Shown here: positions 20,067 to 57,030 of the stretch, one piece after another
Numbering within the stretch: the stretch's first letter is position 1
Layout: every line of letters begins with the position of its first letter
Source: Saururus chinensis
Lineage: Eukaryota; Streptophyta; Magnoliopsida; Piperales; Saururaceae
DNA: 64,000 nucleotides
NCBI GenBank assembly: GCA_035235625.1
Contig: CP141145.1
Location: 36,560,668-36,624,667, forward strand
Reading direction: 5' to 3'
Program-made: the position numbers and the translations under genes
Notes under the pieces: model-generated
Seen by the model: the letters and a program-made list of their open reading frames with translations, nothing else
What the model was told of the DNA's origin: nothing
Databases searched by the model: none

Positions 20067-22975
20067 CTAGAGGTCAGCGACAAAAAGACGAGGATACTTC
20101 TTTCTGATCTCGTCCTCCGTTTCCCACGTGGCTTCCTCGACTCCATGATTCCTCCACAACACCTTCATGAGTGGGATTGCCTTTTTCCGAAGTACCTTCT
20201 CCTTACGGTCAAAAATCTGAATAGGTACCTCCTCGTAGGAAAGATTCTCCTAGAGCTACAACGGTTCAAAATCCAAGACATGAGTAGGATTCGGCTCATA
20301 CTTCCGAAGAAGTGAGACGTGGAATACATTATGGATATCGGCCAGTCAGGGTGGAAATGCTACCCGATATGCTGTGGCACCAATCCGCTCCAAGATCTCG
20401 AATGGACCAATAAAACGAGGTGACAACTTCCCCCGTTGTCCAAATCAAATAACACCACGAGTCGGAGAGATCTTAAGGAAAACATGTTCACCAACACCAA
20501 ACTCCAACTCCCGCCGTCTCCTATCGGCATAACTCTTTTGACGGCTCTGAGCTGCCTGTAACCTCTCCCGGATAAGGCGTATCTTCTCCACTGATTGCTG
20601 AATAAGATCTGGGCCAGTGAGAAGGTGATCTCCAACCTCACTCCAACACAACGGTGATCGGCAAGGACGCCCATAAAGCGCCTCGAAAGGTGACATCCGG
20701 ATGCTCGCTTGGTAGCTATTATTATAAGAAAACTCAACTAGCGGCAAATGTTGCTCCCAACTTCCTTTCCACTTAAGGATACAAGACCGAAGCATGTCCT
20801 CAAGCATCTGAATGGTCCTTTCGGACTGTCCGTCCGTCTGAGGATGGTAGGCGGAGCTAAAATGTAGAGATGTGCCCAAAGCACCCTGAAAGCTCTGCCA
20901 AAACCTCGAAGTGAACCACGGGTCACGATCGGAGACAATAGATACTGGAATCCCGTGTAATTGCACGATCTCCCTCATATGTAGAGCAGCCAAGACATCC
21001 AAAGGAGTAGTCATTCTTATCGCAAGGAAATGAGCGGACTTAGTAAGTCGATCAACAATCACCCAAACCGCATCATTACCACTCGGCGACCATGGCAGTC
21101 CGGAAACGAAATCCATAGTGACGTGCTCCCACTTCCACTCCGAAATCAGAAGTGGTTGTAGTAAACCGCCTCGATGCCGATGCTCTGCCTTGACTTGCTG
21201 ACACACAAGGCATTTGGACACGTAGACAGCAATGTCCTTTTTCATCCCATTCCACCAAAATGTCCTCTTCACGTTGTGGTACATCTTTGTTCCTATAGGA
21301 TGGATAGAGAACTTAGAATGGTGTGCCTATGATAGGATGCGCTCTCTCAACTCAACGGAGTTTGGCACACACCAACGACCCTTATACATCAAACTCCCAT
21401 CGGACTTTTCCTCAAAGCCCAACACTGCCTTCTCCCTTAGCTTAGCCTTAAGAGCTAGGATCTCTTCATCACTTTTCTGAGCCTCGACCACATCATCCAC
21501 CACACTAGAGCTAATAGAGAGATTAGCAAACCAGCTCCGTGTGTCCTCCAAAGTCAACTCTGGCCTTAGCTCAATAGCGTCCTCATAAAGGAGCCACTCA
21601 CGAACTCACATGCAAGCAACCGTAGTGGCTGATTTCTGACTCAAAGCATCCGCCACCACGTTCGCTTTGCCAGGATGATACGATATCGTGAAGTCATAAT
21701 CCTTCAAGAATTCTAGCCACCTCCTTTGCCTCAAATTAAGATCTCGCTGAGTGAATAAGTACTTCAAGCTCTTGTGATCAGTGAATACCTCAAACTTCTC
21801 ACCATAGAGATAGTGCCGCCAAATCTTCAATGCAAAGACTACGGCCGCTAACTCCAAGTCATGAGTGGGGTAATTCCGCTCGTGCACTCTAAGCTGTCGA
21901 GATGCGTAAGCCACCACTCTCCCAAGCTGCATGAGTACACAACCCAAGCCGCGAAGCGAAGCATCACTATAGACCACGAATCCGCCACTCCCGGAAGGCA
22001 AAGTTAGAACCGGAGCTGAAGTTAGCCTCTTCTTCAACTCTTGGAAACTCTCTTCGCAAGCTGAGTTCCACTCGAACTTCTCATTCTTCCTTGTCAACTT
22101 AGTCATAGGGCTCGCAAGGCTAGAAAAACCCTCGATGAAACGGCGATAGTACCTGACAAGTCCTAGGAAGCTACGGACCTCCGATGCACTCTTCGGTTGC
22201 TCCTAATTCAACACGGCTTCAACTTTCAAGGGATTAACCGCCACACCGTCTCTTGATATCACATGACCAAGGAAATGCACTTTCTTGAGCCAAAATTCAC
22301 ACTTGTCAAACTTCGTAAAGAGCTGATGCTCTCGTAAAGTTCGCAAGACAATCCTCAAATGTGATTCATGCTCTTCCTCATTGGCCGAATAGATCAGAAT
22401 ATCATCCACGAATATAATCACAAACCGATCAAGATAAGGCAGAAAGACTTGGTTCATCAAGTCCATAAATGAGGCTCGTGCATTAGTAAGACCAAAAGGC
22501 ATAACTAAGAACTCATAATGCCCATATCGGGTACGGAAAGCCGTCTTTGCAACATCATCAGGACGGATCCGAAGTTGGTGATAACCCGATCTCAAATCGA
22601 TCTTAGAGAATACATGTGCCTACTGCAACTGATCAAACAAATCATCAATTCTAGGTAAAGGGTACTTGTTCTTGATGGTTACCTGATTAAGCATTCGGTA
22701 GTCGATACACAACCGCAGAGAACCATCCTTCTTCCGAACAAATAAGACAGGCGCACCCCAAGGAGATACACTTGGCCTAATATACCCCTTATCCATAAGA
22801 TCCTGCAGCTGAGCCTTAAGCTCTTTAAGTTTGGCTGAAGCCATACGATAGGGAGCCTTAGAAATAGGAGTAGTGCCTAGAATAAGGTCAATGCAAAACT
22901 CTATCTCCCTCTCCGGTGGTAAGCTCGCCAAGTCACTAGGGAAGACATCAAAAAATTCCCCCACAACACGAACAG
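20067..22975 (-). pseudogene. Gypsy pol remnant: reverse transcriptase, RNase H, integrase, chromodomain-like tail
   Basis: Domains in order on the minus strand: the RT palm with [24 protein letters not shown] at about 22415, RNase H ([17 protein letters not shown]), integrase with the H/C zinc module ([11 protein letters not shown]), the DDE core and a tail ending in EEATWETEDEIRKKYPRLF. In-frame stops break it: after DLFDQLQ (22619), a TGG-to-TAG type change near 22203, a TGA near 21606 and a TAG near 21327, with two or three more in the tail. Gag and protease are absent. It cannot encode a working polyprotein. Confidence 0.9.
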
Positions 22976-27844: not shown

Positions 27845-28390
27845 TCAGTAGTGGAGGACAGTGACATTAAACTTGAGCACAGCATTAAAATTGAGAGCAT
27901 CAAGGTAAGCGGTCTCCATAATGGCATACCCTCTTGCGAACCGGAATACACCAGTGCCAGACACAATAGACACCTCTCTCTGCTTCTGCACGAACCTATC
28001 TGAGCCTTGGATCTCCAAGGTGCTTCCATTGTACTTCTTATTTGTGAACACAGCTGAAAATAGCATATGGAGGTCCGAGTTGTCCATGGCCGAGTTGACA
28101 AACAGGCCGTGTGCTTCTCCAACTTTAGTCGAGTTCCTCTCAGGGCCCTCTGTGAGGTCGTCACCAGTCACTACTACAGTGCCATAATAGATCACACTGG
28201 ACTTGGTACCATTAATGCCTGCCACAGTAGCGTCCGTTGGATTTTTGCCCGTCTCCCAGTCTTGCATGTAGAACACCATATTCGTCTCCTTCAACTTACG
28301 ATATTTCGCAGCCTCACTTCCATGAGGAATTGCTACGAGTAGCAGTAAACAGCAACTCGCCCATGTCGCTAGCACACTGCTGCAAGCCAT
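27845..28390 (-). CDS. Dirigent protein (copy A)
   Basis: A single-exon 181-residue frame, the usual size for dirigent proteins. Residues 1-27 are a secretion signal (hydrophobic LLLLVA core). The dirigent domain follows: FYMQDWETGKNPT at 39-52, YYGTVVVTGDDLTEGPE at 68-84, and GTGVFRFARGYA at 145-156. Asn sequons at 60, 86, 121 and 175 suggest a glycosylated secreted protein. Dirigent proteins act in the apoplast and control the stereochemistry of phenoxy-radical coupling in lignan or lignin chemistry, or guide other cyclisations; the product of this one cannot be read from sequence. A TATA box lies about 90 bp upstream of the ATG. The paralogue at 56406-56945 differs by about a dozen residues and a two-residue deletion. 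Confidence 0.93.
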   Translation of the reverse strand: MACSSVLATWASCCLLLLVAIPHGSEAAKYRKLKETNMVFYMQDWETGKNPTDATVAGINGTKSSVIYYGTVVVTGDDLTEGPERNSTKVGEAHGLFVNSAMDNSDLHMLFSAVFTNKKYNGSTLEIQGSDRFVQKQREVSIVSGTGVFRFARGYAIMETAYLDALNFNAVLKFNVTVLHY

Positions 28391-28476
28391 TGGGACGTTA
28401 GATATGCTTATTTCCTGAAAATACTGTTAGTGGCTTCTTGCATATGCAACTCAGGGAACGCCTAAGTATGATGATC

Positions 28477-28484
28477 AATTTATA
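28477..28484 (-). promoter_or_regulatory. TATA box of dirigent copy A
   Basis: TATAAATT on the minus strand, about 87-94 bp before the start codon. The same box is present at the same distance in copy B. Confidence 0.6.
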
Positions 28485-29699
28485 CTGATGAGAGAGTCCT
28501 TAAGGCTGCTAAAGAAGCTGCAACCACAACTAATATAGTAGTAATATTTTGCTTCTCAAAGTCTCGCGTGTTAGCATTTAATATTTAATGATCGATGATG
28601 CTTAGCGCATATTAGTATTAGTAACATTGATGCTAACGTGCGGCGTATTCACTGTCAGTCTCTAGATGAAGAGCTCCATGCACAGCTTAGAGTAGGCTTA
28701 TTGTCATTGAGAGCATAAAAATTGCTTCTGTGATCAAAGTTCACAAGATAAGAAATACCAATCACATTTGTCATTACTCGGTATTAATTAAGAAGGTAGG
28801 CGTGAGACATAGCTTCCACAATTAATTAAGTGGTGAAGCTTCACGAGCATAGCTGCTGGTGAAACTTAATTTATCGGCCGTCTATTATGATAAATCGATG
28901 GTCATGTTTTAGCACATGGTTTCAAGCAATTACATAAATTAACTACTGTGTGTGAAGTCTGTGCACCTATGTATGTGCCGTCCATATTCAATAATAAGTG
29001 GCCAGTAAACGCTGGTGGCACAGATTACGACTCCGTTACTGTGGGGTACATAGTTCTCTCGTCTCGGAGAAATTTTTGGGTGTCTCATCTCGTATTCATG
29101 TAACTTATTTTGCAACTACGATTTCATGGAGAAAACTTATCATCAACCATGCATATCAAATGTAAGTATGATACCTACTCCATCAGGGTGGCTGTTTGCT
29201 AAACAAGTAGGTAGTCCCAGCAAAATAGCTAACAGAAATCATGGAAGCTTTAGAGTCTAAATCCGAACGTGTCGTTTTCATTTTAGGTAATCTTATGCCA
29301 AAGTTGTCTATCCTTCTATAACTAACAAAGTCATTTCATCTTCACATATAAAAAAAAAACTATTTCATATGAAGCTGTCAAAATGCCTCTTGGCGAATGT
29401 ACGAATAAATAATTGATCCCTATTATTTTTTAATCAATTAAACTGTTTCAGCTAGCACTAAGTGCTACGGCATGATCCCCGCTTCTTCTAGAGTTATATA
29501 GTGAGGTTGGATTCTTGGAAGCGCCTTCATGCACACCAAACTAATAATCCTACTATTTGCACCACAGTTACAGATAAATCATACAAGTGTCTAACTTCTA
29601 CACCTGCCCTAAAGAAGAGGAGAAGGTATATAGTGGATAAGTCGATTCATGTTCTGACATGTGAACTCAAGTTAGCACATGAAATTATTTAGGTTTCAG

Positions 29700-31430
29700 A
29701 CATGTAGAAAATATTAAAATGTGTCAAATAGTGAGTGGACTTATGAACCACGTGGATTATGGAATGGTTTCATTAGATAATTTCTTGAGGTAGAGACACG
29801 ACCCATTTTTTTGTACTCAAGTTATACTAACAATCACATTTAGCACAATGATTTTATAATAAGTTGTCTATTGTTTCATTGGTAAGCCACCAACATGTCA
29901 GTGCTTGCATTGGTGAACAATATTTTCAACTATCGATCGGTAGACATTGGACACATTGATCATCACATCAGTGAAATAATAAGTTTCAGTATTTCAAAAA
30001 TTATGACAGTTTTACAATTTTAGACTCTTGGGACGGTTATGCCATATTTAAAGAGAGGAAACTTGGGATTTTGGGTTTGAAAGAAGTTTTTGAGGAGTTC
30101 AAGTGGGAGTGGAGCAACCTGAAGTCTAGTTGCAGAGGATTTGGGCTAGGAAGAGAGTCTCATGTAGATTGAAGGTTGGATTGCACCCTTCTTTGTTTAG
30201 TTATTTGGTATGTATGAGATTTATCTTCTCTTAAGTTTTTGACGAGTTTGGATGTGTGTATTCTTCGAAGATTTTATTGTGCAAAGTGAAATAATGGTGA
30301 TTTAATATTATGATTATTTCATCGTCTATTTCTATATATAAACTATATGGAACTTAGTAATTATGAAAGTTTTACTCTATTTAGATTGAATAAATTATTC
30401 AAAGAACTATTATGATCTCTATTTATTTTATTCGCATCCATTGCATGACCATCAATACATCGGTGTTTGTGTTGGAAGAAGGAAGAAGATGAATAGTACT
30501 AACACTAATGCATTGAGTTGCATTGGGTTAACTGGTCACCGGTAGTGAGATCGACGTGTTCGTGTGGCATCAGTGAGGTGGGATCTCAGAGCTAACCCAA
30601 TTTTGGTAGGGGTTTGACATGTTGACAGGACATTGATAGTCATTGATGCCCTGGCCAACACGTATGTGTGCCTATTGATGGTGCCTCGATGATGAGATTA
30701 CAAACATGATTTATGCTATTTGGTAGTAATATAGTAGTCTTACTTTCCTTACAATTGGATGCATGATTGGATATTATTAAATACGTATTATGTAAGGGTA
30801 TGGTAAGTAAACCCTAATGCTTGTGTGAATCCTTGTGATGAATAGTCACCCCTGACCATTGCATTTCGACACTCAAGAAAAAGGATCATAGTAACTGGTT
30901 GGCTCCAAAAGTGAGTCGTCTTAGTCACGTAGACAAAAGGGTATGGTACGAAAAAAGATGATGGTCTTCCGGCACCCCAAAAGTGGGAGCTTGGAGATAG
31001 GTTTGAATATATTAAAACATAAAAAGATAATTGGTCTAGCGTAATATAAGAGGTTTCAATGATCATATAAGTCGAGATCTTGACGATTATGGTCCATGAC
31101 CCTAGTGAGCCTAAAGGGTTTTGGATAGGCCGTAGTTGTAATGAAGAATTTCTCCTTTAAAATTAGATTTACTTCTTTTCGATAGATTAATTTGTCGTTA
31201 GGTACGTGGGTGTGTCATTTATTGTTTATATTGATTAGAGTATGTGATAGACAAATACCCAATATTTATGGCTTGTCTGTCATAAATGTTTTGATTAGTA
31301 GTAATAATAATTGGTTGGGTCTAGATTACTGAGTAAGCTATCGGTTTGTTTGTTTTGTTGTGCATTTGTTGATGCAGATGGTTTGAACTCGAAACTAGGT
31401 ACACGAAGCATATACACTCTTTACCGTCAA
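29700..31430. other. Noncoding, probably old LTR-type DNA
   Basis: The part to 30945 belongs to the duplication. The block 30575-30995 also recurs at 59110-59446 and 61110-61505, so it is a dispersed repeat. No coding domain is visible. The plus frame at 31444-31644 (Glu-rich, ending in the TA microsatellite) could be the start of an old gag but has no diagnostic motif. Confidence 0.4.
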
Positions 31431-31685: not shown

Positions 31686-32784
31686 CATTAGCATGTGCTA
31701 GTCGCATATGCCCCCAACGTATGCCAGCCATGGGATCGAGATCTCGTAACTTAGGTAGTTGGGGGGCAAAAAAAAAATTTGTCCCTTGAGAGCCACCAGA
31801 TCATGATTTGGCCACTCTGAAGCACCTGGGCACTTCTCAAATTTTGCAGGAGACACACACACATTATGATAATGATAAATTATATAGTTTCTTATTTAGC
31901 CATCCCATTGGGCATACTTAGCATTTGTGTAGTGTAGGTATTTGCAAGATTAAAGTTTTCGTAGGAAATTGTATGTGGAGAAAGGACAAAGTTGTAATGC
32001 TATTTGGCACAATTATTGTATTTAATATTATCATGCTTTAGAGTAGATAACTGTAAGAACACGAGTGCTAATCTATTTTGCATTGGTTTGCGTCGAGATA
32101 TTCAGATGTTCTTGGTTTATGATATAGTTTGTTGTGCCCCGAGGTTTTCAATCTCTTATAAAATTCAATAAAACATATCGGAGTTCGCCCGAGCCTGCAA
32201 ACTGGAGGATTCACCATAAACATAATATAAAATTTCATTTCTTAGGAAATATATTGTATGTGTACAAACACACAAGGAGAAAAATAACAAGGTTTCTTAT
32301 TTGATTTATGGTGCAATTGTAAATCTTCATAAATATCTCAAAAGCTCCCAAATAATCTCTTCTACCCGTGCATTAAGCTTTGCCAGTTCCTCAAAGGTCT
32401 ATGGGGTGGTGAGTATTTTAAAATACTCAATAGGAACATTTATACTATTAGACATAAATGTAACATATGGTAGTTTCAAAGAACAAAAGATAAATAATAC
32501 TTTTAATAAAACAGGGTGACCCTCTCACCAAAACCTCCCCTTGAGCTTCTTCCTAAATATCGAAGATGCTCCTAAGGGGTAAGCTCTTATAGCTTACTAC
32601 TAGTTTCCTAAACACCTACTCCATCTTAAAGAGTCTGCTCTGGGTACAAAGCAACTGCCTTTTACTCCATCACATATCATTGCAAAATAACTCGTGTGGA
32701 GGGAAGAGCCACCCGTGCTCATGGGGAGCCGGGATTAAGAGAGTAGAGAGTTTCTCATGATACTTTCAACCTTAGTGCACATAG

Positions 32785-34419
32785 TGTAACGCTCCTCGTA
32801 TTTTCGAATAAAAGAAAACAATTTTTGAAAACGTAACAAAATTTAATTACAATTGCCAAGGATTACCGTGTACTAAAACAGTAATTACAACATACTTTGT
32901 ATTATACAAAGATTGTCCAAAATTAGGCATCACGTGCCTTTGTACATTGGTCAATACAATAATTTACATGAGTACAAAAACAGTAATACAAAACTTGTAA
33001 TTTAAGGAAACCCTTCGTCGACTCCTTCAGAATCGAGTGAAACACCTGCAGAGTCTGAGGGTAGGTGAGTAAATTTATACTCAGTAGGTCGAATTAAGTT
33101 CTAAGAATATGCTTCGTGCACATGCCATTTTTCTTTTTGGAAATCATTTGAAAAACCTGAAAACACGATCACAGAACGTCGCGATACCAGACGACTTACA
33201 CCCGCGCCCATGGGGCGACGCGAGATTGAAAGGAAGGGATTTACCCATGACATCCCAATCCTGTGCGCGCCAGATGCCAAAATTGGCGGTATCCAAAATC
33301 ATAATAATTCTTAGCTCCGAAGAACCGAGAACTATCCAGACGGCACGATTGCCCAAAACTCGGAGAAATTTTCGAAAGGAGATGATTTTGAAGTCAGAGC
33401 TTTTGTTTTCATAAAGTAACAGAAAACTTTTAGTAAAACTTTAGCGAGTCAAAATCTCGGCATACGATTAAAATTTAAAACTACCTACCTACAACACGTG
33501 CAAAATCTCCTCGTAGTGTAAAGAGAGTCCCGCCTTAATATATCAAACCTTCGAGCGAGAATTTTGGCAGAATAACCACTCCAACGCGTAGAACGCCCTT
33601 GATTTAGTAGGGTAGGGCTTTGGAACGGGTTAAAAAGGTTTAGGAATAGCCCAGAAACAGTAAAAAGATGAAAAGAGAGGATTAGGGAAGGGGCACATTT
33701 TTTGAGGTCTTAGAGGGGTCGTCTCAGGAAAATAACGCTTCTGGTGCATAGAGCACCCTTGAATTAGTAGGAAACGGGTCTTGAAACGTGAAAATCGGAC
33801 TTAAAACGGGTCGGGAATGGTGAAAACAGTGAAGGGGGCTGAAAATCGGGTGTGGGTGAAGAAGTGGCCGGAACAGGCATTTATAGGCGAGGCGGAGGCA
33901 TATTCCGGTGGGCGCCACCGCCGGAATAGGCGGGCGCCCACTGGCGCCGGCGAAACCGCGTTCGCGCGTGACGAACGCGAGTTCGTCACCGCGAACGCGC
34001 GGTTCATCGCGCGTTCGACGCGCGCTGCGCGGCACACGCCACGCGTTGCGCTGTGCCGCGCCGAGTCGCGCCGCGCCAAAAAAAATATTATTTTATTATT
34101 TTTAATTTAAAAAAAATCCAAAAATTCCAAAAATTCTAAAAATTGTAACTTCCTATCCCGAACTCCGATTTGCGCGTTCTTGGTACTGTTGAGTTCGTAT
34201 TCACGAGCCCTACGATACTAGACTATTTAAGAACCGATCCACTTAAATTTTGAAAGTGGGTCCCGCCGGTCGACCACGTTCCCCGAGGTCGTAACTTTTG
34301 CTCCCGACCTCCGATCTTTGTGTTTTAAGACTTGTTACGCTCGTCTCCACGAGCTCTAACCAAAACTTAGGAAAATTAAAAATAACAGAAAATCGTGTTT
34401 AGAAATTAGGGTCATTACA
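32785..34419 (-). repeat. 3' LTR (1635 bp) of the young element
   Basis: Starts TGTAACGCTCC on the plus strand and ends GTCATTACA. It contains a CTATAAATG TATA-like box (minus strand, about 33878-33888) and a CpG-rich palindromic block (33950-34080, repeats of CGCGTTCG and GACGAACGCG). Confidence 0.95.
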
Positions 34420-34459: not shown

Positions 34460-34963
34460 TTATCCACTAAATAACTCAGGGTACTTCTTTTGCATTTCAC
34501 TCTCCAGCTCCCAAGTAGCTTCTTCCGAGGAATGATATTGCCAAAGCACTTTGACTAAGGGGATCCTTTTAGTCCTCAAGATTTGTTCCTTGTGATCCAA
34601 AATTTTAAGTGGCTTTTCTTCGAATGATAGGTTGGGCTTGAGAGTAATTAAACTCTGATCAAGAACATGAGAGGAGTCTTGGACGTATTTCCTAAGCATA
34701 GACACGTGAAATACGTCGTGGACATTGCTGAGTTGTGGAGGCAAGGCTAATCTGTAAGCCACAGCTCCTATTTTGTCCAAAATTTCAAACGGTCCTACAA
34801 AGCGAGGACTTAGTTTGCCTTTAATTTCAAATCTCATGACTCCTCGGGTTGGCAAAACCTTTAGTAATACATGATCTCCCACGCTAAAGTCAATATCCTT
34901 CCGTCTTTGATCTGCATAGCTCTTTTGACGACTATGGGATGCCATTAGACAAATGCTTAACAA
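34460..34963 (-). CDS. C-terminal pol segment (integrase tail and chromodomain-like region), out of frame
   Basis: A 167-codon frame overlapping the end of gag-pol in another frame. From the [16 protein letters not shown] block it carries the integrase C-terminal module ([32 protein letters not shown]) and ends with a chromodomain-like segment ([16 protein letters not shown], then KKYPELF). In relatives this is continuous with integrase, so a single frameshift near 34935-34960 separates it. The apparent Met start is probably not used. Confidence 0.8.
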
Positions 34964-37900
34964 GTTTCACCTTATCTGCACACTGTTGCAGAAGTTCAGA
35001 CTTAATCAATTTTCGTTCGCCCACTTCATTCCAACACGTCGGTGATCGACAAGGTCGTCCGTATAATGCCTCATAAGGTGCCATACCTATGCTGCTATGG
35101 TAGCTGTTGTTGTAGGCAAACTCGACCAATGGTAAATGTTCGTCCCAGTTACCCTTCCAATCCATGGTGCAAGCGCGCAACATATCCTCCAAAGTTTGGA
35201 TAGTTCTTTCTGATTGACCATCCGTTTGTGGGTGGAAAGCAGTGCTGAACTTGAGAGTTGTACCCAATTCTTCTTGAAATCCTTGCCAAAACTTGGAGGT
35301 AAATTGACTATCCCGATCCGAGATGATCGATAGCGGTATCCCATGCCGACTCACAATTTCCTTCACGTACAATTTTGCCAAAGAATTTAAAGATTGCTTC
35401 TTGCTTAATGGCAGAAAGTGTGCACTCTTTGTGAGTTGATCCACGATTACCCAAATGGATTCATGGCCTTGTGAAGTTCTGGGTAGTGCTGAGACGAAAT
35501 CCATAGTAATGTGTTCCCACTTCCACTCGGGAATTTCAATCGTTTGCAGGTACCCTGAAGGTTTTTGGTGTTCGGCTTTAACTTGCTGACAAGTTAAGAA
35601 TCTCGAAATATATTCTCCTATATCCTTCTTCATCCCGTTCCACCAAAAACTTCTCTTTAAATCTTGATACATCTTCGTTCCTCCTGGGTGGATGGTATAA
35701 CGAGAACGATGTGCTTCATGTAATAGGTCTTCCCTTAGCTCCGGAATTTCGGGTATTACCAACCGTCCTCGAAATCGAATACCTCCATCAGAACCTTGGG
35801 TAAAGTCAGGTTTTTCGAGCAAAGTTTGCATTAATTCGTCACTTTTCTGACCTTCAAGAATACGCTCAACTAGCATTGATTTTACTTTTAGGGTGGCAAT
35901 GAAAGATTTCCTGTTTCCAGCTTGTAGCTCGGGTTGTAAACTTATTGTTTCTTCCAATAATTTCCATTCCTTAACAAGCATGGAAGTTAATCCTCCGGAT
36001 TTGCGACTTAAAGCATCAGCCACCACGTTGGCTTTTCCGGGATGGTACTTGATGGAAAAGTCATAATCCTTAAGATATTCGATCCACCGTCTTTGCCTCA
36101 TATTAAGATCACTTTGGGAAAAGATGTATTTTAAACTTTGGTGATCGGTGAAAACTTCAAACATCTCCCCGTATAGATAATGTCTCCAAATTTTTAAAGC
36201 AAAAACTACCGCTGCTAACTCCAGATCGTGAGCAGGGTAGTTACCTTCATGTTTCTTTAACTGTCGTGAAGCGTATGCTATCACTTTTCCGTCTTGCATT
36301 AGTACGCATCCTAATCCTCTTTTAGAAGCATCGCTGTACACGACAAAACCTCCACTGCCAGTTGGCAATGCCAGAACGGGTGCAGTTGTTAATTTCTCCT
36401 TTAGCTCTTGGAAACTTCGTTCACAAGTTTCATCCCAAACAAATTTAACCCCTTTCCTTGTTAATTTTGTTAGGGGTAGGGCAATGCTTGAAAATCCATG
36501 GATGAATCTTCGGTAATAACCCGCAAGGCCTAAGAAGCTCCGAATTTCCGTTACTGTTTTTGGCCTTTCCCATTTGATGACAGCTTCAATCTTGGTTGGG
36601 TCCACCGATACTCCGTTCTTTGAAACGATGTGTCCTAAGAACACCACTCGTTCCATCCAGAATTCGCACTTGCTAAACTTGGCGTATAGCTTATGATCCC
36701 TTAATGTCTGCAGAACAACTTGTAAATGCACTCGGTGATCTTCTAAATTACTAGAGTAGATGAGGATGTCATCGACGAACACGATTACAAACTTGTCTAA
36801 AAAGGGCCAAAAAATTCTATTCATGAGATCCATGAAAGCGGCCGGGGCATTTGTTAAACCAAATGGCATCACTAAAAACTCATAGTGGCCATACCGGGTA
36901 CGGAAAGCTGTCTTAGAGATATCCTCATCTCGTATCCTGAGCTGATGATAACCTGACCGTAGATCTATTTTGGAGAAAACTTTAGCCGTCTGCAATTGAT
37001 CGAATAGGTCATCTATACGAGGCAAGGGGTACTTGTTCTTTACAGTGATGGCGTTGAGAAGTCGGTAGTCAATGCACAACCTTAACGACCCGTCTTTCTT
37101 TCTCACAAATAAGACCGGTGCTCCCCAAGGTGAGACACTGGGTCGTATGAATCCTTTCTCAAGCAATTCCTGCAATTGACTTTTTAACTCTTTTAACTCC
37201 GCAGGAGCCATGCGGTAAGGTGCTTTAGAGATAGGGCTTGCTCCTGGCATCAACTCGATAGTGAAATCTATCTCTCTTTTTGGTGGCAGACCAGAGAGAT
37301 CATCAGGAAAAACATCAGAGAAATCTTGTACTACGTCAATGCTCTTCAAGTTAAACGTAGTAGTCTCATAAGTTTCCACACTAGCAAGATAAGCCCAACA
37401 TCCTTTACTTAAAAGCCGATGAGCTTTGACTGCTGAGATGACACATGGTTTAGAATGATCCTTAAGCCCATAAAAAGTGAAACTCCTATCGCCTCGTTCA
37501 AAGATCACCTTCTTCTGTTTATAGTCCACTAATGCCCCGTTATTGGCTAACCAATCCATACCTAATATGACGTCAAAGTCGGTCATATTTAGGAGAATAA
37601 GGTCGGCCTCCCACTGGCATTTCTCTAAGGAAAAAGGTACCCTTCGAAGAAATTTACGGGCTAGAAACGTTTTTCCCATTGGGGTGGACACTTCTAAGAC
37701 ATATCCTAAATTTAAAATCGGATAGCCGAGAATTGAAGCAAAATCGAACGATATGAAAGAATGCGTCGACCCTGGATCTATCAAAATTTTTGCTAATTTA
37801 TCCAAGACCAGAAGTGTACCTTGAATGACTGCGGTCGACGCTTGAGCTTCCTCAGCAGTAATTGCGAAGACCCGCCCTTGAGCCCTTGGTTTCTGCTCCG

Positions 37901-38903
37901 ATTTTGATTCTTCTTGTATTTTCCTCTTTGGGCAGTCTTTAATCTGATGGCCTTGTTCTCCACAGAAAAAGCATTTTCTTTCGGTACGATAACACGATCC
38001 AAGTGGATGGATTTTACTGCACTGCGGACATTTTTCTAGCTTCCTTTCTCCCCTTGGTTGTGAAGGTGATTCTGAGGGCTTTTGAAACTTACGATTGTTC
38101 TGATTGTTAAATGTCAGTCTCCTTTTCCTCTCATCGGGTCGGAAACTATTATTTTGTCCTCGGTCCTTACGTCCGACCACAAATTCCATATAATCTTGTT
38201 CTAGGATGGAGGCTAGTTCAACCGCTTTGGCAAAAGTCGTGGGTTGATGGCCAATAATTCTTCCTCTTAATCCATTATTTAGGCCCCTCACGAACTTCCG
38301 AGCCTTCTTTAATTCTGTCGTACAATAATCTGGAGCGAAACGTTGTAATTGTACGAATTTATTCTCGTATTGAGTCACCGTTAACCCTCCTTGTTGTAGA
38401 TCTAAAAACTCCTTTTCTTTTCTTTCTTGGACGTGAGGAGGAAAATATTTATCGTATAAAACTTCCTTAAATTCTTCCCACTTAATATGATCACCAACCG
38501 TGAAGAAATTTCTTTCTGCTGTAGGCCACCAGAAAGCAGCTTCGCCAGTCATAGAGAAAGTAGCTAGCGGCACCTTACGATCATCGGGGATCTTCATTGC
38601 TTTAAAGATCCGTTCAACTTCAAAGGTCCACCTTTCAGCGGCCTCAGGGCCTTCTTCTCCCGTAAATGCTGGCGCAAGCTTCTTAAAACGCTCCAACAGA
38701 TTATCCTTTTCACTGTGGATAAAATCTCCCGAACTAGTCAAATGATTGGAATGATTCGATTGGAAACCCTTAGTCATTCTTTGCATTAATAAATCCACGA
38801 AATGCATCATAGGATCTCCCGTTGTCAAAGTGACCGGCGTAGTAACATCGGGTGGAGTTGAGCTACTTGCCGGTTGAGCATCGTTACCACTAACGTTCGT
38901 CAT
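34932..38903 (-). CDS. Gag-Pol polyprotein of the young gypsy element
   Basis: 1323 residues in one frame. Gag covers about 1-330, with a retrotransposon-gag helical region at 65-245, a CPQC...C pair at 292-304 and a zinc knuckle C311-C314-H319-C324. The aspartic protease has [12 protein letters not shown] around D376. RT spans about 555-760 with FVDD at 708-711. RNase H spans about 850-970 (DAS at 858-860, TDH at 919-921). The integrase zinc module is at 1062-1108 and the catalytic core has D1135, D1196 and E1232, a DD35E spacing. The zinc module reads RFLTCQQ where relatives usually have CLTCQQ, so the first Cys of the pair appears lost (residue 1102). The frame ends early through a frameshift, leaving the tail in the 34460-34963 frame. 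RNA packaging, processing, reverse transcription and integration are the family roles. Confidence 0.93.
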
Positions 38904-39098
38904 CTAAACATGGATTAGTAACATCAAGATCTATAGAAACAAACTTACTTTATAACAACCTTGAAGTGTCATTACATCACTCAAAAGTTACGTTAGCTAT
39001 TTACATAATAAAACTATTCTTAGTACACATCAAAATTGTTCCCACGGAACTATTTACTCGAAATTTTTACAGACTTTCTTCTCTAAGTAGTCAAGACT

Positions 39099-39614
39099 TT
39101 AGAGAGGAAAGGTTCTAGCTTTAGGGCATTCAAATAAAAAGTGGGTTAAAAGTCCACAAAACATGCATTGCTCGGGCATTCCATGCCTTCCGGTTTCTTT
39201 CCCCTTGAGGAGACGCTGGACGCCTGGCTCTTCCACCCATTCGACCTCAGGTGGGGGCAGTTCGTTCAGGTCAAAATCCATTTTATACCCAGGGTTATCC
39301 TCGTTAGAATTTTCACTTTCTTCCACTTCTAAGGAGGGATCTTCTTCAGACTCTTCTCCTGGAGTAGGCGAGTCCGGGATAACTATTATTTCGTTCACGC
39401 CACTATTTGTGGGTGAACCGGGGGTGTAAAAGATCTCAGAATCTTCTGAGTCTGAAATTTCGATGGGTGTCTTATCTTCATTGTACATACTCTTGCTACA
39501 GCTTCCTTTCATTGGAAGTGGCAATTTGCGAGCAGTAGAATGATAAAGATTGCTTGACAGATATGTCTTATGCCTGAGCATCGACATCTGTTTAAGCTTC
39601 ACATAAAAATTCAT
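39099..39614 (-). CDS. Extra pre-gag ORF: acidic protein with DLNxxP motif and CCHC zinc knuckle
   Basis: A 171-residue frame between the primer-binding site and gag, same strand and same reading phase as gag-pol but separated from it by stops over 195 bp. Residues 1-45 are basic and Ser-rich. Residues 47-105 are strongly acidic, with two patches (PIEISDSEDSE at 50-60; EIIVIPDSP at 75-83) that look like SUMO-interaction motifs. DLNELP at 115-120 fits the DLNxxP EAR repression motif. C150-C153-H158-C163 is a perfect C-x2-C-x4-H-x4-C knuckle. It matches no Gag, Pol or Env domain I know, so I cannot name it. The host-facing motifs are short and could be chance. The frame is intact in a young element. 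Confidence 0.6.
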   Translation of the reverse strand: MNFYVKLKQMSMLRHKTYLSSNLYHSTARKLPLPMKGSCSKSMYNEDKTPIEISDSEDSEIFYTPGSPTNSGVNEIIVIPDSPTPGEESEEDPSLEVEESENSNEDNPGYKMDFDLNELPPPEVEWVEEPGVQRLLKGKETGRHGMPEQCMFCGLLTHFLFECPKARTFPL

Positions 39615-39698: not shown

Positions 39699-39715
39699 CC
39701 TTGGCTCCGATACCA
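39699..39715 (-). promoter_or_regulatory. Primer-binding site, initiator Met tRNA type
   Basis: Minus strand TGGTATCGGAGCCAAGG lies two bases inside the 5' LTR end. It closely resembles the plant tRNA-iMet 3'-end complement (TGGTATCAGAGCCAGG), with small differences. Confidence 0.85.
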
Positions 39716-39717: not shown

Positions 39718-41265
39718 TGTAACGCTCCTCGTATTTTCGAATAAAAGAAAACAATTTTTGAAAACGTAACAAAATTTAATTACAATTGCCAAGGATTACC
39801 GTGTACTAAAACAGTAATTACAACATACTTTGTATTATACAAAGATTGTCCAAAATTAGGCATCACGTGCCTTTGTACATTGGTCAATACAATAATTTAC
39901 ATGAGTACAAAAACAGTAATACAAAACTTGTAATTTATGGAAACCCTTCGTCGACTCCTTCAGAATCGAGTGAAACACCTGCAGAGTCTGAGGGTAGGTG
40001 AGTAAATTTATACTCAGTAGGTTGAATTAAGTTCTAAGAATATGCTTCGTGCACATGCCATTTTTCTTTTTGGAAATCATTCGAAAAACCTGAAAACACG
40101 ATCACAGAACGTCGCGATACCAGACGACTTACACCCGCGCCCATGGGGCGACGCGAGACTGAAAGGAAGGGATTTACCCATGACATCCCAATCCTGTGCG
40201 CGCCAGATGCCAAAATTGGCGGTATCCAAAATCATAATAATTCTTAGCTCCGAAGAACCGAGAACTATCCAGACAGCACGATTGCCCAAAACTCGGAGAA
40301 ATTTTCGAAAGGAGGAGATGATTTTGAAGTCAGAGCTTTTGTTTTCATAAAGTAACAGAAAACTTTTAGTAAAACTTTAGCAAGTCAAAATCTCGGCATA
40401 CGATTAGAATTTAAAACTACCTACCTACAACACGTGCAAAATCTCCTCGTAGTGTAAAGAGAGTCCCGCCTTAATATATCAAACCTTCGAGCGAGAATTT
40501 TGGCAGAATAACCACTCCAACGCGTAGAACGCCCTTGATTTAGTAGGGTAGGGCTTTGGAACGGGTTAAAAAGGTTTAGGAATAGCCCAGAAACAGTAAA
40601 AAGATGAAAAGAGAGGATTAGGGACAGGCCCACCGGCGCCGCCATGAGAAGAGAGGCATATTCCGGTGGGCGCCGTCGCCGGAACAGGCGGGCGCCCACC
40701 GGCGCCGCCATGAAAAATGGCGGGCGCCCACTGGCGCCGGCGAAACCGCGTTTGCGCGTGACGAACGCGCGTTCATCACGCGCGCGGTGACGAACGCGCG
40801 TTCATCACCGCGAACGCGCGGTTCGTCGCGCGTTCGACGCGCGCGTTCGGCGTGCGCCGCACGGCACACGCCACGCGTTGCGCTACGCCGCGCCGTGCTG
40901 CGCCGAGTCGCGCCGCGCCGAAAAATAAAATATTTATTTTATTATTTTTAATTTCAAAAAAATCCAAAAATTCCAAAAATTCTAAAAATCGTAACTTCCT
41001 ATCCCGAACTCCGATTTGCGCGTTCTTGGTACCGTTGAGTTCGTATTCACGAGCCCTACGATACTAGACTATTTAAGAACTGATCCACTTAAATTTTGAA
41101 AGTGGGTCCCGCCGGTCGACCACGTTCCCCGAGGTCGTAACTTTTGCTCCCGACCTCCGATCTTTGCGTTTTAAGACTTGTTACGCTCGTCTCCACGAGC
41201 TCTAACCAAAACTTAGGAAAATTAAAAATAACAGAAAATCGTGTTTAGAAATTAGGGTCATTACA
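39718..41265 (-). repeat. 5' LTR (1548 bp) of the young element, rearranged in its promoter region
   Basis: Matches the 3' LTR almost base for base except at 40625-40735. There about 220 bp of the 3' LTR (33665-33890), including the TATA-like box, is missing and a GGCGCC-rich stretch is duplicated (GGGCGCCCACCGGCGCCGCC). The CpG-rich block is longer here than in the 3' LTR. Confidence 0.93.
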
Positions 41266-42005
41266 CATAGCCTTTTTAAAGGTTTGTACCCTTCGTTAAG
41301 GGCTAACTAGGGTAAAATAGGAATCGTGCATCTGATTCTAAACCGGATTATAACTATGCCCTCTTCTATCCATAGAGCTCTATAGGGGCATCTACCAACT
41401 AAAGCTCCGAACAACAAATTAATCTTGAGTTCCCTAACTCAGAAAAGGGCAGTTCTACTTTCAAATATTCCACCCAAATATTTGTCCTTTCATAAACCCT
41501 ACCTTCTCCTCTACAAGCCATGAGAGTGTTACTAATAACGACTACAAAGATAGGGTTGGTCACTCATTCCAATGAGACTATTACCCTTTATTTATCTCAT
41601 TCTAGTAACTCGATCACCGTGCTTATACGTATTTTAAAACTTATTCTAAAGAATTATCTTTTCAACAAGGAATAATTCTCTACAATTGTTTTTTAAACAT
41701 ACTTTACTCATTCATAATTTAAACAATGATGAAACTAGATTTTATCTTTTTGACATGAATTAACATGCATAATTCATAATCAACTTCAAAGGATAATCAT
41801 TTGATAAAACGAATATAAGAGGCAATCATAAAAATCACAGTGTATACTTTATATCCTACTTCAAAGAATAATAATTTGATAAATTGAATATATGTTAATC
41901 ATAAAATATACAATACATAATTCATATCCTACTTCAAAGGATAATCATTTGCTAAACCGAATATACGAAGAAATACTAAAATATACCTTGAAACTAACAC
42001 TAGAG

Positions 42006-48680: not shown

Positions 48681-49032
48681 TGTAATAACTCTAAAATTCA
48701 CGGTAAAATTTTTAGTCATTAATAAAGATGATTTTGGAGCTTTTAATATTTTTTTTTAGTTAAAGATTTTTTATATGGTAATATATTATAAGATTATGGT
48801 AGAGCACGAAGAAACGAGCATAATGAGTCGAAAAACGTATGAAACAAAGATCGGGAGTGAAAGATATGACCTCGAAAAGAATATCTTGTGAGCAGGACCT
48901 ACATGTAAAGTATGGACAAACTCAGTCATAAGTGTTTTGGTTTCGTAGGGCTCGTTAATACGAGTCCAACGGTACCAAGAATGCGCAAAACAGAGATCGG
49001 GATAAAAAGATACGAAGGTTTGAAGCTTAATG

Positions 49033-49076
<44 letters not shown>

Positions 49077-50381
49077 AAAACACATGCGCGTGCGGTGCAT
49101 GATGAATGTGCTGAGGCGTGTTTGCACTGCCATTTTTGGCAGAGCCGGAAAAATTGGCAGTGCCATGGGCCATATATAGGGGGAGGGGTGAAATTTGATT
49201 TTCACTACCAATTTCTTATCATTTCCTTGTTTTCTCTACTTCTGAGCCATCCGTTTTAACTTGTTCAAAAACCGTTTCCTACTAAATCGATGGTGTTCTT
49301 CATAGTGAAAGGTTTATTTTCTTAAACCAACCTCTATAAGACCAAGAAAACCTTATCTTCCTTCTCGTTTTCTCCATATCTTATTTATATTGTTTTTGGG
49401 TCATTTCAAGTCCAATTTTACCCGTTCAAAATGCATTCTCTACTAAAGTGATTGTGCTGAATACTGTGGTGGGGTTATTTTTATCATATAAAGACTCTAT
49501 ATTTATAAATTTTATACTTAAGATTAAGGTAGGGCATTTTAAACTCTAAATAACTGCTTTGTTGATCAGAGTCAGTTTCTCTTGAAGTATTTGATTCAAA
49601 TATGAGTATGGTGTTTGTTTAATTGATGAATGGATTTTTGCTTGAAGTATGTGATAATTTTGCTACATGTATCAATGTGAACTGATTTCGTACTCACTAC
49701 TTAGTGTAGTGGTTTCATACACTGTTTTGATGCTCGCCAAGAAAAATAATCGGCTAGTGGCACGCACAGGGTGGAGCATCATGGGGAAACTCCTTCCCTT
49801 AGTGGCCTCCATTGTCCCATGAGCGTGGGGGTAGGCCGTTGGGTATCACAACTTGTAGATTTGATCGGATTTGTGAATTTATTTTGATTTGATTTTGAAG
49901 ATGTTTTGCTTAGCATTTCTTTTATATTTTATACAAACTTACTGAGTTTAAATGTACTCACGTACCCCCAGACTTTGTAGGTGATGCAACGAAAGAAGAA
50001 GTGGACAAAGAAAAGATTTTCAAATAGTTGTGTGATTGCTATGTCAGGAAAATAATGTAATTATATATATGACTGACGTGTAAAGGCACGATGTGCCTGA
50101 ATAATAATATATTTGTATAACTCCTAGCTCTATGTACAATAATCTTTGGTACATGTATTAATCTTACATTATAAACTCTTGTAATTATTTTCTTTTAATA
50201 TTTTTGGTTGGGCTATTACTCTGACATATTCTACAATGAGTATAAGATGATAAGAAAAGAAAAAAAATGTTTGGCCATTTTGCGTTAACGGCCGTCATGT
50301 CCAATTACATGCATACTTATTATGCATGTTAGATATTATTATTATTATTATTATATTATCCAGAAATGGGTGGTTGTTACA
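48681..50381 (+). repeat. Solo gypsy-type LTR with TATTG target duplication
   Basis: Begins TGTAATAACTC, ends GGTTGTTACA, and is flanked by TATTG on both sides (48676-48680, 50382-50386). Length is 1701 bp. It carries the LTR signature ACTGAGTTTAAATGTACTCA near 49936 and shares blocks with the remnant at 1-900. No internal domain remains, so it arose by recombination between two LTRs. A TA microsatellite sits at 49037-49073. Confidence 0.9.
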
Positions 50382-51116: not shown

Positions 51117-54100
51117 TGTCATGCCCTAGCGATGCCCGACCCGAGCCGAACCCGGTCCAGGGGCCGGTCAAACGCGCGGGGGCGACGAAGTGACATTGAG
51201 AAATGATCTAGCGGAAGACTTAACCCTAACCACGGGCAATTAACAAAACTACGGAGTATGCACAATCCTTTGAGCAAGAGTAAATAAAAAGGGAAAGAAA
51301 AGAGAGTTGCTTATCACAAAGTAAACAACTAATCTCAAACTCACATGCTTATTTAATTAGCCTACACTGGCTCAAATAAATCTTAAGCAAACATAACTGT
51401 AAAATGTGACATCAATCCAAAATAAAGAACCCTACACAAAGGTTCTAGACATAAGCATAAAACCAAAGAAGATAAGTCACATATCGATCTCCAAGATCAC
51501 ATCCAAGCCATCTCCGACCTTTCCTCAAAGAGGAGATCCTGTCCGTCTACGTGTCGCACCACGCAGCCCCAAATCAAAACACAAGAAAGAGGGGTGAGTT
51601 TAACAAACTCAACAATAGTTTTTAATATCACTATCAACATCGAAAATACGATAGCATAGTAATAAGATCATTCAGATCAAAGATTTACATGGTGCATCAT
51701 TCTCTGATCACACATACACATCACCTAAAACTGCATCATAGTGCATAATACACATAATTTCATTCTCATCATAACCACCTTGCATGAGATGTATCTCTAA
51801 CATACATATTCCCACATGCATAACATCAACATCAACCTGCATGGGTGTATCTCTAACATACATATTCCGCATGCATAACATCAACATCAACCTGCATGAA
51901 TGTATCTCTAACATACATATTCCACATGCATAACATCAACATTAACCTGCATGGATGTATCTCTAACATACATATTCCACATGTATAACATTAACATCAA
52001 CCTGCATGAATGTATCTCTAACATACATATTCCACATGCATCATATCATAATCAACCTGCATGGATGTATCTCTAACATACATATTCCCACATGCATTTA
52101 TCATAACAACCTCCATCAAGGAGTAATCACATGTTGGTGTCACACAGACGGAACATAAACAAGGCCACGAAGGTGTGTCAAGGTCCAAAATTCTACACAA
52201 GAATTCAAGAAAGATCGGGGTTGTCAATCCCTAATGCTGCTCGCCCTGGACGATCCTGGCCAAGGATGTCCCATTTTCACACAGAGAATCTAGAGTAGGG
52301 GTGTTCGCCCAGGGACATCTCCTGCGGAGGGAAGAGCCCGAGTTATCACACAGAGAACCCTATAACACGTAGTAGCGGGGTGCACACGGCATACCACCCT
52401 GGATTCTCAGGGTCCAGATGACACTCATAATAACATCTCACAAATTCACAAGACAAGTACACAACTCGTCCCCACATAATTCCATTTAATTAGACTCAAC
52501 CCGGGGAGTGCACTCGTTCCACATAGGAACTCAATCAAAATATGTCCTTTTGGACCAATCAACTTGCGATTAATCCACGACCGATCAATCCGGCACACAA
52601 TTTCATCACATTACATCCAATCGGTCAAATTCGATTAACCACAATGAAGCCTCAATTGGAAATCCATTTTCATTATGCGTGCAGCATGGTACATACGTGG
52701 GCAAAACATACATTAATCCTAATCTATGATAAGTGCTCTCACCAGCCCCTAATACATCATTCATAATCACAATATCAAGCTTCAACATCATCATTCAACC
52801 CCCACATGTGTGTGTGTAACTAGTAGAAGTATTTCACACAATGCATGTCAACATGCTTGAAATTAAACTCACTACCACACTACACATGTGAATTATCATC
52901 TAAACATGAATTCCAATGGAAATCATAGGAGAAGAAATGTTGAAATCATAACTCAAATCAAAACTCAACCACAAAGGTTAAACACATATAAGATCATGCA
53001 TTTCATCCTTGAGTCATGGCATTCACCAACATTCACATATCAACAAACCACATCTTATCATGACAAATCAGTCCAATAATAGGTTGTAGTTCTACTAAAA
53101 ATATGCTTAACAATGAGGAACCAACCATTCATAATTTCAAGATGACAATTCTAACATCATGCCACAAAATATAAGTCCTTCCACAAATCTCTAAGCATAT
53201 ATCTCAACTCCATAAACTCAATAGTATGCATTTCTAGTAGCATAATATAGCTTAAAACATTCCACATTCATATGAAATTGGCAAGCTAAAGTGGAATCAT
53301 CGAAATGAACATCATATGCACAACATACGATTTTACTGTGCAGCTGTTTGAACGCCCTTTAGGCTGTTCGATCGGTTACACGCAAAAATTTAAAATTCAC
53401 AGTTTGGCCGTTCGAACACCTAGCAGGCCGTTCGATCGGCTGAACTGAAAAATTGTCGTTCCGACAGTGTTGCCGTTCGAATGCCCAGGAGGGCCGTTCG
53501 AACGCCAACAAGGCAGAACTGGTCATCTTCTTCCTTTCGCAAATCCAAACCGAAACACCAAAGATAATACTTCAAATCCACATCTAACACCCTAATCATC
53601 ATCAAAAGTCCTTCATGACTTTCAGAACATCAAACCATATCATAATAAAGCAAAACCCTAAGAAATCGGGATTAAATAATTCAATTTTCTAATCTTACCA
53701 TTAACACTCCAAATCAAGTAATCTCCATTCAAAATAAGCCAAAAATCAAGAATGTTACCATGGATAAACTGAGATTTTCGAAGACCCATTACCTCAGCAC
53801 TTGATTAAGCTCGGATTTAAGAGTCACCCTTCTTGAAATCCTTGAAAACACATTGAGTTTGAATTAGACTCCATTACAAGTTGATTTACCAAAGAAACCC
53901 TTAATTAAATCTTAGATCTAGGGCTTGTTGGTTGTAAAAATCGAATTTTGAAAGCTAGGGTTTGTAGTAAAACACAAATCAGTAACTTTTGAGGTCTAAA
54001 AACAAATTAAAACATGGGGAAAATAGTAGATTTAGAAGAGATTGGGAAGAAAGCTAGGGTTTAATGCTTGATTAGAGTAGGCTTACCTTAATCGGCTTCT

Positions 54101-56405: not shown

Positions 56406-56945
56406 TCAATAGTGGAGGACAGTGACATTAAACTTGAGGACAGCATTGAAAGGATCAACATAAGCGGTCTCCACAATGGCATACCCTCTTGCGAACCGGA
56501 ATACACCTGTCCCAGATACAATAGACACCTCTCTCTGCTTCTGCACGAACCTATCTGAGCCTTGGATCTCCAAGGTGCTGCCATTGTACTTCTCATTTGT
56601 GAACACAGCTGAAAATAGTAAATGAAGGTCCGAGTTGTCCGTGGCCGAGTTGACATACAGGCCGCGTGCTTCTCCAACTTTGGTCGAGTTCCTCTCAGGG
56701 CCCTCCGTCAGGTCGTCACCAGTCACTACTACAGTGCCATAATAGATCACCCTGGACTTGGTACCATTGATGCCTGCCACAACAGCGGCTGTTGAATTCT
56801 TGCCCGTCTCCCAGTCTTGCATGTAGAACACCATATTCGTCTCCTTCAACTTACGATATTTCGCAGCCTCACTTCCATGAGGAATTGCTACGAGTAGCAG
56901 TAAACAGCAACTCGCCCATGTCGCTGGCACACTGCTGCAAGCCAT
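56406..56945 (-). CDS. Dirigent protein (copy B)
   Basis: A single-exon 179-residue frame with the same signal peptide and dirigent domain as copy A. Differences include a KNSTA stretch in place of KNPTD, which adds an Asn sequon at 50; R for H at 94; Y for F at 97; and YVDPFN in place of YLDALNFN, a two-residue deletion just before the last strand. The core motifs (YYGTVVVTGDD; GTGVFRFARGYA) are unchanged. The frame is intact, so both copies are probably functional. Regulation may be shared because the promoter is duplicated too. Confidence 0.93.
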   Translation of the reverse strand: MACSSVPATWASCCLLLLVAIPHGSEAAKYRKLKETNMVFYMQDWETGKNSTAAVVAGINGTKSRVIYYGTVVVTGDDLTEGPERNSTKVGEARGLYVNSATDNSDLHLLFSAVFTNEKYNGSTLEIQGSDRFVQKQREVSIVSGTGVFRFARGYAIVETAYVDPFNAVLKFNVTVLHY

Positions 56946-57030
56946 TGGGAAGTAATATATGCTTATTTCCTGAAAATACTGTTAGTGGCTTCTTGCATAT
57001 GCAACTCAGGGATCGCCTAAGTATGATGAT

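What the first reader, a model, noticed from the sequence alone, without database searches (positions are those of the whole stretch)
39099..39614. Retrotransposon-encoded extra protein with EAR-type repression motif, SUMO-interaction-like patches and a zinc knuckle
A young gypsy element carries an intact 171-codon frame between its primer site and gag. It combines an acidic domain with two SIM-like patches, a DLNELP motif (fits DLNxxP, the TOPLESS-binding EAR form) and a perfect CCHC knuckle at 150-163. None of these belongs to normal Gag-Pol. The layout suggests a nucleic-acid-binding adaptor that could bring host co-repressors or SUMO pathway proteins to element RNA or chromatin, for self-silencing, targeting or defence evasion. 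The motifs are seen; the role is inference.
Basis: partly seen in the sequence, partly recalled or inferred. Interest (0 to 1): 0.78.

Follow-up and report, generated by a model that had tools for sequence, protein, structure and literature searches.

The report
Retrotransposon accessory protein with corepressor-type motif
A plant jumping-gene family carries a small extra protein that selection has kept intact in many copies, and its best-preserved stretch matches a peptide that a fungal pathogen uses to bind the plant gene-repression protein TOPLESS; what the protein does here is untested.

Summary
The frame is real and looks functional. It is a sense 5' extra ORF (aORF/ORF0 type) of a Ty3/gypsy chromovirus, between the primer site and gag. 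In the same 516-Mb plant genome, 150 of 150 scored candidates match (620 passed the first look). Of 97 gag copies found independently, 96 have all or part of it directly upstream. Between 16 clusters of copies dN/dS is 0.45 (bootstrap 0.34-0.59); on seven copies compared directly gag gives 0.24 and this frame 0.41. Constraint is uneven: DFDLNELPP is the most constrained of 153 nine-codon windows (dN/dS 0.05), SIM-like patch 1 gives 0.16, the acidic linker 1.03. DLNxxP is kept in 89 of 95 copies, the CX2CX4HX4C knuckle in 88. The conserved start is Met10, not Met1. The exact hexapeptide DLNELP occurs in the fungal effector Jsi1, whose TOPLESS binding needs it. No homologue outside this genome and no Pfam family was found; no transcript data were at hand. 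5' extra ORFs in Tekay-type elements are already known; the motif layout was not found in my literature searches. The adaptor role is plausible and untested.

The parts
39099..39614 (-).
   Evidence: 150 of 150 scored matches in the own genome, 620 first-look candidates
39099..39587 (-). conserved part of the ORF, Met10 to stop (162 codons plus stop)
   Evidence: Met10 in 95 of 95 aligned copies; stop at the same place in 93 of 95
39435..39464 (-). SIM-like patch 1, IEISDSEDSE, residues 51-60
   Evidence: dN/dS 0.16; core pattern in 86 of 95
39366..39389 (-). SIM-like patch 2, IIVIPDSP, residues 76-83
   Evidence: dN/dS 0.35; pattern in 83 of 95; not significant against random residue sets, 0.12
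39279..39365 (-). acidic linker, residues 84-112
   Evidence: dN/dS 1.03; residues 51-128 are 31% Asp/Glu with net charge -23
39252..39278 (-). EAR-type core DFDLNELPP, residues 113-121 (DLNELP at 39255-39272)
   Evidence: lowest non-synonymous rate of 153 nine-codon windows, dN/dS 0.05; intact in 85 of 95, DLNxxP in 89 of 95
39126..39167 (-). CX2CX4HX4C zinc-knuckle pattern, residues 150-163
   Evidence: 88 of 95 copies; no Pfam zf-CCHC match
39718..41265 (-). 5' LTR
   Evidence: flanked by target-site duplication CTATG at 41266-41270
39703..39715 (-). primer binding site TGGTATCGGAGCC (initiator-Met type, recalled)
   Evidence: same place relative to Met10 in most copies
34932..38903 (-). 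gag-pol frame (gag, zinc knuckle, protease, RT, RNase H, integrase)
34460..34963 (-). second, overlapping frame: integrase C-terminal part and chromodomain
   Evidence: Chromo 24.0 bits against a curated cut-off of 25.1
32785..34419 (-). 3' LTR
   Evidence: target-site duplication CTATG at 32780-32784

Best explanation
SHOWN: a sense 5' extra ORF, present throughout a large chromovirus family in one plant genome, encodes a protein of about 157-162 residues under purifying selection, with the strongest constraint on DFDLNELPP. INFERRED: it is a mostly disordered accessory protein that works through short linear motifs. The C-terminal knuckle would hold it on element RNA or Gag complexes. The acidic middle would bind SUMO or SUMOylated nuclear proteins through IEISDSEDSE (perhaps also IIVIPDSP) and TOPLESS/TPR corepressors through DLNELP. 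Most likely it engages or titrates the corepressor to the element's benefit, as DLNxxP effectors of fungi do, rather than silencing its own element, because selection on transposition would not easily keep self-silencing.
For: Family-wide presence: 73 of 74 long loci have the LTR end/primer region upstream, 70 of 74 have gag downstream; 96 of 97 gag copies found independently have all or part of the frame upstream. dN/dS 0.45 (0.34-0.59), 0 of 2000 bootstraps at or above 1; DFDLNELPP 0.05 and lowest of 153 windows; SIM-like patch 1 0.16. Indels are rare in the frame against its flanks (0.081 against 0.892 and 0.644 per 100 nt). The identical hexapeptide DLNELP is in Jsi1, and changing the motif there abolishes TPL binding (PMC8126959, passages). 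DLNxxP and the SIM-type pattern are absent from the element's own gag-pol and chromodomain frames.
Against: No binding data, no transcript data, no homologue outside this genome. DLN motifs are common: 2112 non-transposon rice proteins are reported to have one (PMC6479872, passages). For the six-codon DLNELP alone 5 of 156 windows are as low or lower, and the four fixed DLN..P residues alone reach only 0.087 against random sets; SIM-like patch 2 (0.12) and the knuckle ligands (0.16) are not significant. Other invariant residues (for example E125-W126-V127, R143-H144-G145) have no motif explanation. The non-coding leader diverges no faster than the frame.
Confidence: 0.45

Rival explanations
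1. Particle-side accessory protein: a nucleocapsid-like chaperone or assembly factor. The knuckle binds element RNA, the acidic part tunes Gag assembly, and DFDLNELPP is a contact with Gag or integrase that only resembles an EAR motif.
For: A knuckle with the same spacing as the element's own Gag knuckle; fixed position next to gag; invariant residues outside the host-like motifs.
Against: Does not explain the SIM-like patch 1 nor the match to a proven TPL-binding hexapeptide; knuckle ligands are not the most constrained residues; no Pfam knuckle match.
Confidence: 0.3
2. Captured host gene fragment: the frame came from a host regulator with EAR and SIM motifs and may or may not still act. This concerns origin and can be combined with the best explanation.
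For: The motifs are host-like. The own-genome searches scored only the best 150 candidates (620 and 502 passed the first look), so a distant host gene could be hidden.
Against: No Pfam family and no protein match at E 1 or better, while the same protein database does return plant gag-pol proteins.
Confidence: 0.1
3. No protein function: the 5' leader is constrained as RNA (packaging, primer-site context, splicing) and the open frame is incidental.
For: The 110 nt upstream of Met10 and the spacer to gag diverge as little as the frame (0.117 and 0.128 against 0.130). Shared changes are only weakly biased to third positions (85, 79, 102). Within the 60 youngest rows the shared/singleton contrast is not significant (p 0.20).
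Against: dN/dS below 1 with a tight interval and a sharp pattern along the protein; indels are depleted in the frame only; the frame is conserved from Met10 and not before it.
Confidence: 0.07

Closest known systems
5' aORF of sunflower Tekay group 2 (Tekay 13-2), PMC11728184
   Same: Sense ORF upstream of gag in a Tekay element, in 500 of 523 copies according to the paper, largely disordered, no Pfam domain (section 2.5 read; other passages)
   Different: About 400 residues, proline-rich, with a predicted nuclear localisation signal; no EAR, SIM or knuckle described in what I read. Sequences were not compared here.
ORF0 of Retrosat2, RIRE3, RIRE8 and FRetro3 in grasses, PMC3485330
   Same: Extra ORF upstream of the gag-pol frame; non-synonymous rate higher than that of the polyprotein (passages)
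   Different: The paper reports ORF0 only in grasses and infers hydrolase-like folds; no EAR, SIM or knuckle in the passages seen. Sequences were not compared here.
DLNxxP effectors such as Ustilago maydis Jsi1, PMC8126959
   Same: The same hexapeptide DLNELP; there it is needed for binding TOPLESS-family corepressors (passages)
   Different: Secreted fungal protein, unrelated host organism; resemblance of one short motif, not a family relation
Accessory ORFs such as Grande gene23, PMC7264820
   Same: Conserved accessory ORF of a plant Ty3/gypsy element; the Grande product is nuclear (parts 1 and 2 of 3 read)
   Different: Antisense and between pol and the 3' LTR; here sense and 5'

Membership tests
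Plant LTR-retrotransposon 5' aORF (ORF0-type) | Sense ORF between the 5' LTR/primer site and gag | tested here: met
Plant LTR-retrotransposon 5' aORF (ORF0-type) | Present in most copies of the family | tested here: met
   96 of 97 gag copies, complete or partial
Plant LTR-retrotransposon 5' aORF (ORF0-type) | Protein-level constraint | tested here: met
   dN/dS 0.45, bootstrap 0.34-0.59
Homology to grass ORF0 or sunflower 5' aORF proteins | Sequence or fold similarity | not tested
   Their sequences were not in hand; the protein database gave no match
Tekay/Del chromovirus | Domain order gag, protease, RT, RNase H, integrase, chromodomain | tested here: inconclusive
   Order as expected, but Chromo scores 24.0 against a cut-off of 25.1 and lies in a second frame
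Tekay/Del chromovirus | Placement with Tekay in an RT tree | not tested
   No tree built; gag search returned, among others, an Oryza brachyantha gag-pol protein
EAR repression motif (DLNxxP) | DLNxxP sequence, conserved | tested here: met
   89 of 95 copies; DFDLNELPP dN/dS 0.05
EAR repression motif (DLNxxP) | Binding to TOPLESS/TPR | not testable with these tools
   Only the precedent of the same hexapeptide in Jsi1
SUMO-interaction motif | Hydrophobic core next to an acidic/serine stretch, conserved | tested here: inconclusive
   Patch 1 core in 86 of 95, patch 2 in 83 of 95; the strict pattern (recalled) occurs in 69 of 95; patch 2 not significant
SUMO-interaction motif | Binding to SUMO | not testable with these tools
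   no assay
CCHC zinc knuckle | CX2CX4HX4C spacing, conserved | tested here: met
   88 of 95 copies; ligands not more conserved than random sets, 0.16
CCHC zinc knuckle | Match to the Pfam zinc-knuckle family above its cut-off | tested here: not met
   No zf-CCHC match; Lin-28A-like knuckle in 5 of 17 members at best E 0.073. So 'knuckle-like' only.

The most novel reading that the evidence does not exclude
A retrotransposon family that carries its own TOPLESS- and SUMO-binding accessory protein: a convergent, element-encoded counterpart of pathogen EAR effectors, which intercepts the host corepressor or SUMO-dependent silencing machinery at element RNA or chromatin.
Probability: 0.3. Interest if true: 0.85.

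Novelty: new variant of a known kind. Interest (0 to 1): 0.6.

Why it matters
Extra ORFs of plant LTR retrotransposons are widespread and mostly of unknown function (PMC7264820; PMC11728184). Here selection points to one nine-residue stretch that matches a peptide with a known host partner, so 'function unknown' becomes a single interaction test. If it holds, a transposon would be shown to engage a central plant corepressor with a protein of its own, which would offer a route to other 5' aORFs.

Tried and rejected
Chance frame: rejected by dN/dS, indel depletion and family-wide presence. RNA-only constraint: largely rejected, see rivals. Met1 as the conserved start: rejected in favour of Met10. 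Stop readthrough, suggested by the single TAG in many 70-75% copies: rejected, because in the copies read the shared TAG lies just before Met10. Homologues elsewhere: none at E 1 or better with the single protein (15 candidates scored) or with a 17-sequence alignment (769 candidates); the gag control gives 149 proteins, best-scoring row 41% identity over 97% (120 of 149 listed, the named ones are plants), so close relatives of this element may simply be missing there. Solved structures: no significant match, best Lin-28 knuckle E 0.49. No structure prediction was run: a single-sequence model of a largely disordered protein would say little, and the tool does not list genome loci among permitted rows.

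Full report
Observation. The minus-strand frame 39099-39614 exists as described. It belongs to a Ty3/gypsy element bounded by LTRs at 39718-41265 and 32785-34419 and by the target-site duplication CTATG. After the 5' LTR come a primer site of the initiator-Met type (type recalled), the extra frame, a frame with gag, protease, RT, RNase H and integrase domains (34932-38903), and an overlapping second frame with the integrase C-terminal part and a chromodomain that scores 24.0 bits against a cut-off of 25.1 (34460-34963). The polyprotein of this copy is therefore interrupted. The LTRs are 98.9% identical over 907 bp of the 3' part and differ at 70 of 1489 aligned sites overall.

The family. The window lies in a genome of 516 Mb in 11 contigs. 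A protein search there gave 620 first-look candidates; the best 150 were scored and all 150 matched, at 68-100% identity. I read 100 distinct copies: the first 70 of that list and 30 chosen from the other 80 to cover divergent groups. The list ranks by protein similarity and my choice partly favoured open frames, so the share of intact copies is not an unbiased rate. Of 74 long loci (four of them overlapping copies already among the 100), 73 have the LTR end/primer region upstream and 70 have gag downstream. The reverse test does not start from the extra frame: of 97 gag copies (4885 first-look candidates, 97 scored), 84 have an extra-frame hit directly upstream in the list. Of the other 13, read directly, 12 contain all or part of the frame and one (L115) shows none within about 900 nt. 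The sum is 96 of 97.

Coding constraint. 95 of the 100 copies align in one frame over Met10 to the end; five were dropped because one frame did not cover it (L060, L064, L066, L070, L077). In 93 of 95 a stop codon follows at the same place. Thirteen rows have a stop flagged, one of them (L099) before Met10; the 82 others were used for rates. They fall into 16 clusters at 7% nucleotide distance. With equal weight per cluster pair dN is 0.125, dS 0.279 and the ratio 0.45; the codon bootstrap gives 0.34-0.59, with 0 of 2000 at or above 1. Leaving out rows with stops biases somewhat towards constraint; decay of single copies after insertion biases the other way. On the same 21 pairs of seven copies gag gives 0.24 (0.20-0.29) and the extra frame 0.41 (0.30-0.57). 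Indel events per locus per 100 nt, 73 loci against the window copy, are 0.081 in the frame, 0.892 in the spacer to gag and 0.644 in the 100 nt upstream; 14, 69 and 24 of 73 loci have any. Because one copy is the reference, an indel private to it in the spacer is counted in many comparisons. Of 29 indels in the frame only 6 have lengths divisible by three, as expected for decay of single copies.

Weaker or contrary results. Shared changes are poorer in non-synonymous ones than singletons over 95 rows (169:97 against 163:47, p 0.0009), but not within the 60 youngest rows (60:37 against 94:40, p 0.20). The leader around the frame diverges no faster than the frame (0.117 upstream and 0.128 in the spacer against 0.130), so the 5' region as a whole seems constrained, or its neutral rate is below the frame's dS; I cannot tell which.

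Where the constraint falls. dN/dS by region: residues 10-49 0.44; IEISDSEDSE 0.16; 61-75 0.62; IIVIPDSP 0.35; acidic linker 84-112 1.03; DFDLNELPP 0.05; 122-149 0.45; knuckle stretch 0.44; tail 0.31. DFDLNELPP has the lowest non-synonymous rate of 153 nine-codon windows; for DLNELP alone 5 of 156 six-codon windows are as low or lower; the SIM-like patches rank 22 of 152 and 25 of 154. Against random residue sets of equal size, DFDLNELPP (0.0006) and SIM-like patch 1 (0.0067) stand out; the four fixed DLN..P residues (0.087), SIM-like patch 2 (0.12) and the four knuckle ligands (0.16) do not. Single-copy clusters, some of them decayed, weigh on these tests. Motif counts in 95 rows: DLNxxP 89, DFDLNELPP 85, CX2CX4HX4C 88, patch 1 core 86, patch 2 83; a strict SIM pattern, recalled, occurs anywhere in 69. 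In the 35 rows beyond the closest subfamily: 31, 31, 32, 32, 28 and 20.

Start codon. Met10 is in 95 of 95 rows. Directly before it stand CAG (69), TAG (20), CAA (3) and three others. Copies of older subfamilies have that TAG or are out of frame upstream, and a query beginning at Met10 finds copies with an open frame of about 157-162 codons. The protein is best taken as residues 10-171. Met1, Met10 and Met12 of the window copy lack a purine at -3, and 21 ATGs lie between the LTR end and the gag start. So gag may be reached by leaky scanning, reinitiation or splicing; which one is unknown.

Relatives. No Pfam family matches the window protein, and among 17 subfamily members only sub-threshold matches occur. 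The protein database gives nothing at E 1 or better for the single sequence or for the alignment. The gag control in the same database returns 149 proteins, best-scoring row 41% identity over 97%. The lack of homologues therefore does not show that the extra frame is restricted to this lineage. The best match in solved structures is a Lin-28 knuckle at E 0.49, not significant.

What is known. 5' extra ORFs in Tekay-type elements are a described class: sunflower Tekay group 2 (PMC11728184, section 2.5 read; other passages), ORF0 of the Retrosat2 group in grasses (PMC3485330, passages), and a survey and a review (PMC6317226, passages; PMC7264820, parts 1 and 2 of 3). Steinbauerova et al. 2011 is known to me only through citations in these (not held). 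Nothing that I read there describes an EAR motif, a SIM or a CCHC knuckle in such a protein. Four searches combining retrotransposon or transposon terms with TOPLESS, EAR, DLNxxP or SUMO terms listed no such report (15 of 17 papers listed; 7 of 7; 15 of 86; 2 of 2; titles and abstract starts only). The library holds open-licence papers only, so this does not prove novelty.

Mechanism. The exact hexapeptide DLNELP occurs in the smut effector Jsi1, where changing the motif abolishes binding to maize TPL1 and the contact is placed on the second WD40 domain (PMC8126959, passages). That a transposon keeps the same peptide inside the most constrained window of its extra protein makes corepressor binding my leading hypothesis for that stretch. 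The acidic serine-rich patch IEISDSEDSE would suit SUMO binding, and the knuckle RNA or Gag contact. I judge an effect on the host in favour of the element more likely than self-silencing. None of these contacts has been shown, and DLN motifs are common in plant proteins (2112 non-transposon rice proteins; PMC6479872, passages).

Verdict. The class is known; the motif layout and the place of the strongest constraint make it a new variant worth one direct interaction test. The odds given for the best explanation (0.45) and the novel reading (0.3) refer to the inferred mechanism; that the frame is a conserved coding sequence I hold at about 0.95.

Noticed in passing
38901-38924, minus strand: A six-codon upstream frame (reading MLLIHV) ends in a TAG that directly abuts the gag ATG; the 29 nt before gag are nearly invariant in 70 copies, TAG in 69 of 70. 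Possibly reinitiation, or a splice acceptor region.
   Followed up: partly
34932-34963, minus strand: The gag-pol frame and the chromodomain frame overlap here: the polyprotein of this copy is interrupted. Described only.
   Followed up: no
48940-49447: Short, diverged pieces (67-84% identity) similar to this element's LTR, in the opposite orientation.
   Followed up: no
27845-30134 and 56406-58676: A duplicated block (92-98% identity over the repeat pieces) about 28.5 kb apart, each with a similar 179-181-residue ORF that looks dirigent-like by eye, untested.
   Followed up: no
17570-19492 and 52150-54075; 20445-22106: A second pair of repeats, 88-92% identical, and nearby ORFs that look like Ty3/gypsy RNase H and integrase by eye; no relative of the extra protein there apart from chance-level matches.
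   Followed up: no
32785-34419 against 39718-41265: The two LTRs diverge unevenly: 98.9% identical over 907 bp at one end, 87.8% over 547 bp elsewhere, which may reflect repeat-length change, conversion or recombination.
   Followed up: no
39399-39401 and 39135-39137, minus strand: The window copy has Gly72 and Leu160 where 92 of 95 copies have Asp and Phe.
   Followed up: no
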